Origin: a virus
Virus record (IMG/VR): IMGVR_UViG_3300010354_000211
Location: 1 to 39,425 of that record
DNA: 39,425 nt
Reading direction: 5' to 3' (one strand)
The translations under genes and the position numbers were made by a program. This document shows positions 2,393 to 4,704 of the stretch, in pieces (the first letter of the stretch is position 1; each line of letters starts with the position of its first letter). The notes under the pieces were generated by a model. It saw nothing but the letters and a program-made list of their open reading frames with translations, had not been told where the DNA came from and ran no database searches.

Positions 2393-2709
2393 TTTCTAAA
2401 GCGATAAAGGTTAACCACTTGGTTTTAGCGCAGACCTTTAGGATGCTTCAAGCGGGGCCTGTGACCGCGCAGGCACTGGCAAAAGAGACCGGGGTTCACG
2501 TTGTCACAGCGCAGGACTGGCTCAGGGCGTTGAAGGCGGAGAAGACAGTACACATAGGCAGTTGGTTGCCAGACAGTCTCGGGCGTGACGCAGTGCCCGT
2601 ATACGAGCTAGGCGACGACAGGGATGAGCCGCGAAGGCGGCTTACGAGGGCTGAGATATCTCAGCGATATAGGGCACGGCAGAAGCTAAAGGAGAACGGA
2701 AATGACTAA
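2389..2709 (+). CDS. Winged helix-turn-helix-type DNA-binding protein (106 aa)
   Basis: Residues about 12-50 read as a helix-turn-helix: LAQTFRMLQAGPVTAQALA, then ETGVHVVTAQDWLRAL, then a beta wing (KTVHIGSWLP). The pattern matches the 'lowering activity through substitution of helices' seen in MarR/IclR-like folds, but no ligand domain follows. The tail RAEISQRYRARQKLKENG is basic. It is coupled by ATGA to the upstream gene and overlaps the DUF3310 gene by eight bases. It is probably a small phage transcription factor. Confidence 0.6.
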   Translation: MISKAIKVNHLVLAQTFRMLQAGPVTAQALAKETGVHVVTAQDWLRALKAEKTVHIGSWLPDSLGRDAVPVYELGDDRDEPRRRLTRAEISQRYRARQKLKENGND

Positions 2710-3010
2710 AGAAAAAGACCCCATTTTTGACTTTAATGTTTTCGACGACAAGGACTTTACGGTGCAGCTAGACACGGCAGCCCCCGCTGATCAGCAGCAG
2801 ATCGGCGGCACGCACTATAAGGACATGGGCATCCAGCCGTGGGCTGTGATGCAGGCTGTGCTGACACACGACGAGTGGATCGGCTACCTCAAGGGCAACG
2901 TCATCAAGTACGGCATGCGCCAGGGTAAGAAAGACTCGGACGATGCCAACAAGGCCAAGCATTACGCCAAAAAGCTGGCCGAAGAGTTGCGTAAAGGTTT
3001 CAAGTTCTAG
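2702..3010 (+). CDS. DUF3310 protein (102 aa)
   Basis: The core QIGGTHYKDMGIQPWAVM followed by GYLKGNVIKYGMRQGKKD and KAKHYAKKLAEEL is the typical DUF3310 signature, found in many tailed phages and sometimes named SaV-like nucleotide-kinase-associated. The family is small and helical, and its biochemical role is not established. The N-terminal 30 residues (acidic, Phe-rich) precede the domain. It is the last gene before the structured non-coding region and terminator at 3011-3198, so it ends a transcriptional segment. Confidence 0.85.
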   Translation: MTKEKDPIFDFNVFDDKDFTVQLDTAAPADQQQIGGTHYKDMGIQPWAVMQAVLTHDEWIGYLKGNVIKYGMRQGKKDSDDANKAKHYAKKLAEELRKGFKF

Positions 3011-3198
3011 GTCGGGTGTAGATGACAGAACGCGGCAAGCCTTGTAGATGTGACCCGCAGATCTGATCGGCACGTACCCGACGAACTCTGTTCGCGTGCC
3101 GACTCCACGTACCGCGAAACGAGGGGGCGCGGAATCTACATCCCCCCTCACCCCGTTCCGCCAGGAACCCCTACCACCTGCGCCACCGGCGCCTTTTT
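3011..3198 (+). ncRNA. Candidate structured RNA / leader between the DUF3310 gene and gene 3211
   Basis: This GC-rich stretch has no convincing gene but many complementary segments. P1 pairs 3014-3023 with 3134-3143 (10 bp, one G-U). P3 pairs 3067-3074 with 3095-3102 (8 bp) and is stacked directly on P3b, 3082-3086 with 3090-3094 (5 bp, loop TCT). P4 pairs 3112-3116 with 3128-3132 (5 GC pairs). P5 pairs 3155-3159 with 3164-3168 (tetraloop GCCA). A weaker P2 pairs 3032-3035 with 3055-3058. The P3 bulge 3076-3081 is complementary to 3012-3017, in competition with P1. The region ends in an intrinsic terminator. The pairings are visible in the sequence; that they form a functional RNA is inference. 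Confidence 0.5.
3180..3198 (+). terminator. Intrinsic terminator upstream of gene 3211
   Basis: The stem GCGCC (3180-3184) pairs with GGCGC (3188-3192) across loop ACC, followed by C and five T (3194-3198). The ribosome site AAGGA of gene 3211 begins immediately after the T run. It could be a plain terminator or the expression platform of the upstream RNA. Confidence 0.65.
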
Positions 3199-3210
3199 AA
3201 GGAAATTAAC

Positions 3211-3522
3211 ATGAACAAAATCACCATTAACGGTATTGATTACATCCCCGAATCAGAAGCGGCTGCACGCCCGACCGGCACCCGCGCTGTGGTCGTCGTT
3301 GATCGAGGCTGGATATTCGCAGGCGATGTGACGCGTGAGAACGGACGTATTCGGCTCACTCGGGCTCTATGGGTGTTTTCGTGGGAGTCTATCGGGTTTG
3401 ACGGAGTGATTGCCGACCCTAAAAACAAGCTGGCCAAAATCAAACCCATGCCAAACGGTGTGGACATTCCAGAAGGCGCTGAGGTGTTCTGCGTTCCAGT
3501 GTCAGACGATTGGGGGCTGTAA
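3211..3522 (+). CDS. Hypothetical beta-rich phage protein, DUF6948-like (103 aa)
   Basis: The ATG at 3211 has TTAAGGAAA seven bases upstream. The protein reads as successive beta strands: RAVVVVDRGWIFAGDV, GRIRLTRALWVFSWES, then EGAEVFCVPVSDDWGL. From memory this resembles DUF6948-type phage proteins ('valuing' a V-G-x-V...A-R-x-I-W-x-W pattern), which I recall next to Gly-rich repeat genes; this needs a search. The last codons overlap the start of the first repeat gene (TAATG), and copies of this junction occur before the other two repeat genes. Function unknown; it is probably a partner of the repeat proteins. Confidence 0.6.
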   Translation: MNKITINGIDYIPESEAAARPTGTRAVVVVDRGWIFAGDVTRENGRIRLTRALWVFSWESIGFDGVIADPKNKLAKIKPMPNGVDIPEGAEVFCVPVSDDWGL

Positions 3523-3785
3523 TGTTTCGACCAGTAGGCTGCGGCTACGGCGACGGCTGCGGCTACGGCGACGGCGACGGCGACGGCAACGGCAACGGCC
3601 ACGGCTACGGCAACGGCAACGGCGACGGCAACGGCGACGGCTACGGCTACGGCAACGGCGACGACAACGGCGACGGCAACGGCTACGGTTACGGCAACGG
3701 CTACGGCAACGGCAACGGCTACGGCTACGGCTACGGCTACGGCTACGGCTACGGCACAGTCAACAACTTAAGAACAAGGAAATAA
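3522..3785 (+). CDS. Gly-Tyr/Asn/Asp dipeptide-repeat protein, copy 1 (87 aa)
   Basis: The product is MFRPV, about 35 Gly-X dipeptides with X mostly Tyr, Asn or Asp (a few Cys, one His), then the tail GTVNNLRTRK. The DNA is a hexamer repeat GGC-NAC in which only the first base of the second codon varies. A GGGGG tract before the ATG acts as ribosome site, and the start overlaps the stop of gene 3211. Such a chain should be disordered. The basic tail and the aromatic, acidic and amide repeats suggest assembly or phase behaviour, which is inference. The five-residue head and ten-residue tail are shared with copy 2. Confidence 0.55.
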   Translation: MFRPVGCGYGDGCGYGDGDGDGNGNGHGYGNGNGDGNGDGYGYGNGDDNGDGNGYGYGNGYGNGNGYGYGYGYGYGYGTVNNLRTRK

Positions 3786-4275
3786 ACTGGGGGATGTAAT
3801 GTTTCGACCAGTAGGCTACGGCAACGGCTACGGATACGGCGACGGCGACGGCGACGGCGACGGCTACGGTTACGGCGACGGCAACGGCGACGGCTACGGT
3901 TACGGCTACGGCTACGGCAACGGCGACGGCAACGGCGACGGCAACGGCTACGGCAACGGCAACGGCTACGGCTACAGCTACGGCTACGGCAACGGCACAG
4001 TCAACAACTTAAGAACAAGGAAATAAATTGGGGGATGTGATGTTTCGACCAGTAGGCTACGGCAACGGCAACGGCTATGGCTACGGCTACGGCGACGGCA
4101 GCGGCGACGGCAACGGCAACGGCAACGGCGACGGCTACGGCTACGGCAACGGCGACGACAACGGCGACGGCAACGGCTACGGTTACGGCAACGGCTACGG
4201 CGACGGCTACGGCTACGGCTACGGCTACGGCTACGGTTACGGCTACGGTTACGGCAACGGCTACGGCAACGGCAC
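3540..4275 (+). repeat. GGC-NAC hexanucleotide repeat arrays in three blocks
   Basis: Three blocks (about 3537-3756, 3815-3999 and 4058-4275) of GGC followed by TAC, AAC or GAC. They are separated by near-identical linkers of about 60 bases, which hold the tail, stop, ribosome site and head of consecutive genes. The hexamer period makes the blocks prone to slippage and recombination. Confidence 0.9.
3799..4026 (+). CDS. Gly-Tyr/Asn/Asp dipeptide-repeat protein, copy 2 (75 aa)
   Basis: Same architecture as its neighbours: MFRPVGYG head, Gly-X repeats and the identical GTVNNLRTRK tail. It starts 13 bases after copy 1 ends, behind CTGGGGGATGTA, which preserves the ribosome site. The near absence of synonymous variation (GGC almost always, TAC/AAC/GAC) shows recent expansion or homogenisation. 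All six frames are open because of the hexamer, so the ORF alone proves nothing. The conserved head, tail and ribosome site are the evidence for translation. Confidence 0.55.
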   Translation: MFRPVGYGNGYGYGDGDGDGDGYGYGDGNGDGYGYGYGYGNGDGNGDGNGYGNGNGYGYSYGYGNGTVNNLRTRK

Positions 4276-4294
4276 AGTCAATAACAGAAAGTAA
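4040..4294 (+). CDS. Gly-Tyr/Asn/Asp dipeptide-repeat protein, copy 3 (84 aa)
   Basis: Head MFRPVGYG, Gly-X repeats with one Ser, and a shortened tail GTVNNRK. ATG 4040 is used rather than the in-frame TTG 4028 because the GGGGG ribosome site aligns with the other copies. The segment 4121-4201 is identical to 3627-3707 of copy 1, including an unusual Asp-Asp step. Copies 1 and 3 therefore share a recent origin or have recombined. Probably co-translated with copies 1 and 2. Confidence 0.55.
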   Translation: MFRPVGYGNGNGYGYGYGDGSGDGNGNGNGDGYGYGNGDDNGDGNGYGYGNGYGDGYGYGYGYGYGYGYGYGNGYGNGTVNNRK

Positions 4295-4297
4295 ATA

Positions 4298-4381
4298 ATG
4301 GCAATCAATCTTAAAACCACCGGCCAACTGGACGTTTCCGGGGTCAAGCTCTTGGTTCCCCCCTCACCCCATAACTTGTAA
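4298..4381 (+). CDS. Possible micropeptide (27 aa)
   Basis: The ATG at 4298 lies three bases after the stop of repeat copy 3 and opens a frame starting MAINLKTTGQLDVSGVKLL. The beta-like start resembles phage structural fragments, but the piece is short and lacks a good ribosome site. Most of the space to the next gene is covered by it. It could be a remnant or non-coding. Confidence 0.25.
   Translation: MAINLKTTGQLDVSGVKLLVPPSPHNL
4357..4370 (+). repeat. 14-nt direct repeat of 3141-3154
   Basis: TCCCCCCTCACCCC occurs at 3141-3154, inside the candidate RNA, and again at 4357-4370. The two copies flank gene 3211 and the three repeat genes. They may be flanking direct repeats of a cassette, a shared RNA element, or a low-complexity coincidence. 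Confidence 0.5.
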
Positions 4382-4388
4382 CTTACAA
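4376..4388. promoter_or_regulatory. Perfect palindrome before the nuclease gene
   Basis: TTGTAA-C-TTACAA is a perfect 13-nt palindrome about 20 bases before the VRR-NUC start, at the beginning of the replication block. It looks like an operator half-site pair; no cognate regulator is proven. Confidence 0.3.
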
Positions 4389-4407
4389 CTTGCTCGGAGC
4401 AACATCT

Positions 4408-4704
4408 ATGACAGCACTTACTCCTGAGGGTCGCGTGAAAGCGCACATCAAGAAGATCCTCAAAGACGCAGGCGCGTATTACTACATGCCTGTCAGCGGC
4501 GGTATGGGCAAGCACGGCGTCCCTGACTTCCTCGTGTGTTACCGAGGGAAGTTTATCGGCATCGAGGCCAAGGCAGGCAGAGGCACAACCACCGCGCTGC
4601 AGGACAGAGAGCTTGCCGAGATTGTGCAAGCCGGCGGCGTGTCGCTGATCATCAACGAGAACGATCTGGACTACCTGAAGGGGGTCTTCAATGAGGGAGC
4701 ATAA
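4408..4704 (+). CDS. VRR-NUC domain nuclease (98 aa)
   Basis: A stand-alone VRR-NUC nuclease of the PD-(D/E)XK superfamily. The catalytic set is visible: Asp40 in GVPDFLV, then Glu53 and Lys55 in GIEAKAG. Gly-rich SGGMGKHG comes before and a QDRELAEIVQAGG helix after, as in phage members. The family cuts branched or Holliday-type DNA and is common in phage replication modules. ATG 4408 with CGGAG at 4395-4399 is preferred to the upstream TTG 4390. It overlaps the next gene by 14 bases. Confidence 0.88.
   Translation: MTALTPEGRVKAHIKKILKDAGAYYYMPVSGGMGKHGVPDFLVCYRGKFIGIEAKAGRGTTTALQDRELAEIVQAGGVSLIINENDLDYLKGVFNEGA

What the first reader, a model, noticed from the sequence alone, without database searches (positions are those of the whole stretch)
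3011..3198. Multi-stem structured RNA with a switch-like alternative pairing, ending in a terminator
Between the DUF3310 gene and gene 3211 there is no good gene but an unusual number of complementary segments. The 10-bp closing stem 3014-3023/3134-3143 encloses an 8-bp stem with a stacked 5-bp extension (3067-3102), a 5-bp GC stem (3112-3132) and a weaker stem. A 5-bp tetraloop hairpin (3155-3168) and the intrinsic terminator follow. The bulge 3076-3081 can pair with 3012-3017, which would break part of the closing stem. The GGGGG loop of the GC stem can pair with the C6 at 3142-3147. The SD of gene 3211 begins at the end of the T run. This could be a riboswitch or attenuator, or an independent phage sRNA.
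Basis: partly seen in the sequence, partly recalled or inferred. Interest (0 to 1): 0.8.

Follow-up and report, generated by a model that had tools for sequence, protein, structure and literature searches.

The report
New pseudoknotted RNA in phage genomes
Just before its DNA-copying genes this uncultured phage carries a roughly 140-letter RNA that folds into interlocked knots, and the same fold, absent from the reference RNA library, recurs in more than a hundred other uncultured phage sequences, so it is a real and apparently undescribed RNA family whose job is still unknown.

Summary
It occurs once per record, on the strand of the replication genes, in most genomes within about 2 kb upstream of a PolA-type DNA polymerase. 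Compensatory changes support six helices and three pseudoknots: P1 (3011-3017/3076-3082), P2, P3 (3067-3074/3095-3102), P4 (3112-3116/3128-3132), P5 (3043-3049/3134-3140), P6 (3121-3127/3143-3149). Its "alternative" pairings (3012-3017 with the bulge; G5 with C6) are the conserved helices P1 and P6. The hairpin and "terminator" (3155-3197) are not part of the RNA. They are the coding 3' end of a Pro-rich ORF inside a 1,216-bp insertion flanked by a 14-bp repeat of the RNA's 3' end. No Rfam 15 family matches, no hit was found in phage isolates or 84,980 species genomes, and related phages have clean empty sites. Existence and fold are near certain. The mechanism is inferred: an mRNA-embedded regulatory element of the replication operon is favoured; a ribozyme or an independent ncRNA remains open.

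The parts
3011..3149 (+). The conserved structured RNA (P1 to P6), starting right after the DUF3310 stop codon (3008-3010)
   Evidence: homologues; covariation
3011..3017 (+). P1 5' strand GUCGGGU, pairs with 3076-3082 (in the loop of P3; pseudoknot)
   Evidence: P1 of at least 6 bp in 55/59 with 44 distinct 6-mers; A1 73.9% paired vs 62.4% shuffled and 36-48% slid
3026..3065 (+). P2 hairpin: 3026-3029/3062-3065 and 3032-3035/3055-3058, holding the conserved GCCU-c-GYGA loop
   Evidence: at least 5 contiguous pairs flanking c in 58/59, a liberal search; weakest of the six helices
3043..3049 (+). P5 5' strand (c) UGUAGAU in the P2 loop, pairs with 3134-3140
   Evidence: 98.8% paired, 5 of 7 pairs with both-sided changes
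3067..3074 (+). P3 5' strand UCGGCACG, pairs with 3095-3102
   Evidence: covarying in every parsed sequence; own vs swapped helix score 20.3 vs 9.8
3076..3082 (+). P1 3' strand ACCCGAC, inside the P3 loop
3095..3102 (+). P3 3' strand CGUGCCGA
3103..3111 (+). J3/4, conserved pyrimidine-rich CUCC..A joining segment
   Evidence: column counts
3112..3132 (+). P4 hairpin CCGCG/CGCGG (3112-3116/3128-3132) with loop A..GAGGGGG
   Evidence: 94.8% paired, 3 of 5 pairs with both-sided changes
3121..3127 (+). P6 5' strand GAGGGGG in the P4 loop, pairs with 3143-3149 (pseudoknot)
   Evidence: 96.8% paired, 3 of 6 pairs with both-sided changes; recovered independently by RNAalifold
3134..3140 (+). P5 3' strand (c') AUCUACA
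3143..3149 (+). P6 3' strand CCCCCUC, followed by conserved ACC (3150-3152)
3141..3154 (+). 14-bp copy 1 of the direct repeat TCCCCCCTCACCCC flanking the insertion (copy 2 at 4357-4370)
   Evidence: junctions
3155..4370 (+). Inserted 1,216-bp cassette (not part of the RNA): Pro-rich ORF remnant, gene 3211, three repeat ORFs
   Evidence: blastn against L002/L062; repeats
3153..3200 (+).
   Evidence: same coding end in L101 and L156
4408..4704 (+). VRR-NUC/phrog_93-like endonuclease, the usual first gene downstream of the RNA
   Evidence: tblastn 91% to L002 protein; phrog_93 and annotated VRR-NUC relatives

Best explanation
Shown: 3011-3149 is one copy of a conserved RNA that folds as two H-type pseudoknots (P1 with P3, hairpin P2 in between; P4 with P6) tied together by P5, which joins the P2 loop to the stretch between P4 and P6. 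The helices behave as RNA of the sense strand. Inferred: it is part of the phage mRNA and acts there as a regulatory element at the boundary between the upstream gene (usually DUF3310) and the endonuclease-polymerase part of the replication operon. Binding of a metabolite or phage protein, or ribosome arrival at the upstream stop codon that sits at or inside P1, would shift the folded state and so set how much expression passes on to the replication genes: at translation or mRNA processing in most lineages, at the following terminator where there is one.
For: Six helices with compensatory changes in 58-59 diverse homologues. More G-U than A-C mismatches in P1 (65 vs 23) and P3 (82 vs 50), as for sense-strand RNA. 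One copy in each of 19 positive records, none in negative records up to 62 kb. Same strand as the flanking genes, with PolA within about 2 kb downstream in most loci, even where Pol is 35-39% identical to the window's. 3' end a median of 22 nt before a start codon, with a Shine-Dalgarno in 42 of 53 versus about 51% at other ORFs. 5' end within about -13 to +17 nt of an upstream stop codon in most loci, whatever the upstream gene. Terminator directly after the RNA in L286/L309, L316, L393, L395, L398. No frame stays open through it in common and lengths are spread evenly mod 3.
Against: The Shine-Dalgarno is not visibly sequestered. In the window a 1.2-kb cassette separates the intact RNA from the endonuclease. 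In L276, L288, L393, L395, L397 and L398 a sigma-70-type promoter lies between the RNA and the next gene, so that gene does not depend on read-through. Close relatives live without the RNA. No ligand, protein partner or transcript was examined. Tight packing against genes is also what compact phage genomes give by default.
Confidence: 0.5

Rival explanations
1. An independent (trans-acting) phage ncRNA carried inside the operon or as a 3' UTR and released by processing; neighbouring genes are incidental.
For: Position does not depend on one downstream gene: cassette inserted next to it, terminator and separate promoter after it in several lineages, unrelated upstream genes. Self-contained fold, single copy per record.
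Against: No promoter of its own was found upstream in 13 of 15 loci examined, only weak 3-mismatch matches in L286/L309, and none in window 2600-4500. The 5' end lies at or inside the upstream stop codon, so it is probably co-transcribed. Long-range linkage to Pol is kept.
Confidence: 0.25
2. A new self-cleaving (or otherwise catalytic) RNA that cuts the polycistronic mRNA between the upstream gene and the replication genes.
For: Compact multi-pseudoknot fold with conserved unpaired residues (GCCU/GYGA in L2, A after P4a, AA before c', ACC after P6). Would work in every context seen, with or without a terminator.
Against: No Rfam ribozyme matches. No cleavage site can be inferred from sequence. 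No functional data.
Confidence: 0.15
3. A DNA-level element such as a replication origin whose single strand folds.
For: Nearly always in or near the replication module.
Against: G-U exceeds A-C in helices. Orientation matches the genes. GC skew shows no switch at the site. The phage has its own primase/helicase-like protein. Relatives lack the element.
Confidence: 0.05
4. One reading: riboswitch with the 10-bp closing stem switching to the 3012-3017/3076-3081 pairing and its own terminator at 3198.
For: The pairings are possible in the window and a few near relatives.
Against: Closing stem is unpaired elsewhere (48.9% vs 47.2% shuffled). The terminator is coding-derived insert and at chance level.
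Confidence: 0.03

Closest known systems
Rfam 15 (all 4,227 families)
   Same: Curated library of structured RNAs, many with pseudoknots and some from phages
   Different: No match at gathering threshold in the window or in 16 homologous loci except one tRNA elsewhere; only chance hits at E about 2-3 in the region
Phage autogenous translational operators with pseudoknots (such as the T4 gene 32 mRNA leader; from own knowledge)
   Same: Structured, pseudoknotted 5' leader of a phage replication gene
   Different: Here six helices and three pseudoknots, about 140 nt, start codon and SD outside the fold, terminator or promoter after it in some lineages; no protein partner known
Candidate structured RNAs from metagenomes (PMC2864571, PMC8040213; found by search)
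   Same: Found by comparative genomics in uncultured sequence, many without known function
   Different: This fold matches none that reached Rfam; the papers themselves were not read motif by motif
Riboswitches with terminator expression platforms (from own knowledge)
   Same: Compact aptamer-like fold, in some lineages followed by an intrinsic terminator
   Different: No overlap of the terminator or SD with the fold was seen, and in several genomes the next gene has its own promoter

Membership tests
Any Rfam family | Score at or above the family's gathering threshold | tested here: not met
Conserved structured RNA | Compensatory base-pair changes above shuffled and slid controls | tested here: met
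   0/500 shuffles on the covariation score
Conserved structured RNA | Not protein-coding | tested here: met
   no common open frame, lengths 111-164 nt evenly spread mod 3
Riboswitch | Aptamer fold in the 5' UTR of the regulated gene | tested here: inconclusive
   median 22 nt before a start codon in 53/59, but terminator and/or separate promoter intervene in some lineages and a cassette in the window
Riboswitch | Expression platform mutually exclusive with the aptamer | tested here: inconclusive
   the only switch pairing proposed is not conserved; no other was found by inspection, but none was searched for systematically
Riboswitch | Binds a small-molecule ligand | not testable with these tools
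   needs in-line probing or SHAPE with metabolites
Self-cleaving ribozyme | Site-specific self-cleavage | not testable with these tools
   needs in-vitro assay
Intrinsic terminator at 3174-3197 as part of the RNA | GC stem plus T run, associated with the RNA across homologues | tested here: not met
   inserted coding-derived sequence; scan at chance; 2 of 59 homologues have one within 130 nt
Independent sRNA | Own promoter and own 3' end | tested here: inconclusive
   3' terminator in several lineages, no convincing own promoter; transcripts not available

The most novel reading that the evidence does not exclude
A new class of functional RNA (a new ribozyme, or a new sensor of a nucleotide or replication protein) built from two H-type pseudoknots joined by a long-range helix, controlling the replication operon of a large group of uncultured phages.
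Probability: 0.4. Interest if true: 0.92.

Novelty: categorically new. Interest (0 to 1): 0.82.

Why it matters
A conserved RNA with three pseudoknots, kept in phages whose polymerases share only 35-39% identity, points to a real function that no database entry explains. Natural empty sites and a natural insertion beside it give ready comparisons, and the structure is well enough defined for probing, structure determination and activity tests. If it senses something, it would be a sensor used by phages to time DNA replication. If it cleaves, it would be a new ribozyme. As a broad kind (structured intergenic phage RNA) it is not unheard of; the family and the fold are what is new.

Tried and rejected
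Single-sequence folding gives the wrong closing stem and cannot show pseudoknots. The first viral contigs pattern had one G too many and found nothing; corrected. Genome contigs: the first pattern gave 0 hits; the second gave 14, all chance by the model (at most 7.2 bits). Isolate phages: blastn with nine homologues found none. Whole-record model searches of five near Pol relatives among isolates found none; the 16-bit Rhizobium phage hit lies antisense inside a long CDS. Origin of replication: no skew switch. Swap tests for P1 and P2 with wide search windows were weak; the constrained P1 test is clear, and P2 stays the least certain helix. Terminator as a regular part: 2 of 59. Literature searches found no description.

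Full report
What was checked. The region lies between the DUF3310 gene (2702-3010) and gene 3211 in an IMG/VR virus record of 39,425 bases. No Rfam family matches.

Homologues. blastn of 3011-3210 against 238 related IMG/VR loci split the region in two. Positions 3011-3154 match DNA upstream of an endonuclease and PolA in dozens of contigs. Positions 3150-3206 match only loci of the gene-3211 family. Some of these loci are the same contigs fetched twice. There is exactly one copy in each of 19 positive records and none in 11 records without it. The pattern fixes the G5, C5 and AATCTRC letters in the loci it fetched, so their invariance there is not evidence; the 23-sequence alignment A1, made without that pattern, shows the same covariation.

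Fold. Order along the strand: P1a, P2a, c, P2b, P3a, P1b, P3b, CUCC, P4a, G-rich loop strand, P4b, AA, c', C-rich strand, ACC. On 58 sequences (A2) P5, P4 and P6 are 97% paired, 11 of 18 pairs change on both sides, 101 cells, 0/500 shuffles, and sliding the partner by one column drops pairing to about 45%. RNAalifold recovers P6 without being told. P1 forms at least 6 bp in 55 of 59 with 44 different 6-mers, and scores 19.6 with its own partner against 12.2 with partners from other sequences. On the imperfect alignment A1 it still gives 73.9% against 62.4% shuffled. P3 covaries throughout. P2 flanks c in 58 of 59 by a liberal search and is the least certain. In L063 (read by eye) the G-rich/C-rich pair itself is replaced by GGCAGG/CCUGCC. 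In L255, L261, L263, L274 and L282 the P1 pseudoknot seems replaced by a local hairpin. Helices were partly located by maximising pairing, so the alignment-based counts carry the proof. G-U pairs exceed A-C mismatches (P1 65 to 23, P3 82 to 50), which fits RNA of the sense strand. No reading frame is shared and lengths are spread evenly mod 3.

The closing stem 3014-3023/3134-3143 pairs no better than shuffled (48.9% vs 47.2%), and a comparable pairing exists in 5 of 59. The true partner of 3134-3140 is 3043-3049. The 'alternative' 3012-3017/3076-3081 is P1 and the G5/C6 pairing is P6. The tetraloop hairpin and terminator belong to a 1,216-bp insertion: the window matches L002 up to 3154 and again from 4357, with the 14-bp repeat TCCCCCCTCACCCC at 3141-3154 and 4357-4370. 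In L101 and L156 the same stretch is the end of a Pro-rich ORF (by reading), here PFRQEPLPPAPPAPF*, whose last codons make the T run. The terminator scan is at chance level.

Context. The usual next gene is a small VRR-NUC-like endonuclease (phrog_93), in the window at 4408-4704. Pol follows within about 2 kb in most loci, even in divergent phages. In L297, L299 and L266 the RNA lies next to an AAA+ ATPase and an HNH-type gene. The 3' end of P6 is a median of 22 nt before a start codon in 53 of 59, with a Shine-Dalgarno in 42. The 5' end of P1 lies at the upstream stop codon, 5th to 95th percentile -12 to +15.5 nt in 56 loci (the nearest ORF was chosen, so some may be spurious). In L393, L395, L398, L286/L309 and L316 an intrinsic terminator follows, and L276, L288, L393, L395, L397 and L398 have a sigma-70-type promoter before the next gene.

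Presence and absence. Polymerase relatives without the RNA have no gap: the upstream ORF, in several cases DUF3310, abuts the endonuclease. On a quick tree of 103 polymerases presence needs 5 changes against 23 for shuffled labels. The sample was partly chosen by the RNA and the tree cannot tell gain from loss. In a sample of a second polymerase group fetched by the polymerase alone, 6 of 80 loci carry it. None was found in isolate phages by blastn with nine homologues, in five related isolates searched whole, or in 84,980 species genomes by the exact patterns used.

Interpretation. That this is a conserved RNA with this fold I hold at about 0.97. A DNA-level role is disfavoured. A plain translational riboswitch is hard to reconcile with the inserted cassette and with the terminator/promoter lineages. 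A regulatory element embedded in the transcript fits most observations, with translation or processing as the likely level where no terminator follows and attenuation where one does, but ligand, protein partner and effect are unknown (0.5). An independent ncRNA (0.25) or a ribozyme (0.15) would fit the same contexts. Novelty is claimed for the RNA family and fold, not for a function; only open-access papers could be searched, without result.

Noticed in passing
window 3155-4370: A 1,216-bp cassette (Pro-rich ORF remnant, gene 3211, three tandem repeat ORFs, a fragment MAINLKTTGQLDVSGVKLLV) is inserted beside the RNA and flanked by a 14-bp direct repeat of the RNA's own 3' end.
   Followed up: partly
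window 3522-4293: Three ORFs made almost only of a 6-12 bp repeat (CTACGGCAACGGCGACGG...), each starting ATGTTTCGACCAGTAGGCT; function unknown.
   Followed up: no
L276, L288, L329, L397: A near-perfect TTGACA-16-TATAAT promoter sits between the RNA and the endonuclease, with the start codon only a few bases after the -10 box.
   Followed up: partly
L065, L073, L077, L080, L284: The first gene after the RNA has a CA-rich leader without a Shine-Dalgarno.
   Followed up: partly
L255, L261, L263, L274, L282: The P1 pseudoknot appears replaced by a local hairpin (loops GAAA or GCAA in some) at the same place.
   Followed up: partly
L101 4870-4985, L156 4880-4990: Conserved small Pro-rich ORF (NWPFPTYKG...PFR.EPLP.A.PAPF*) upstream of gene-3211 relatives; not searched against family libraries.
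   Followed up: no
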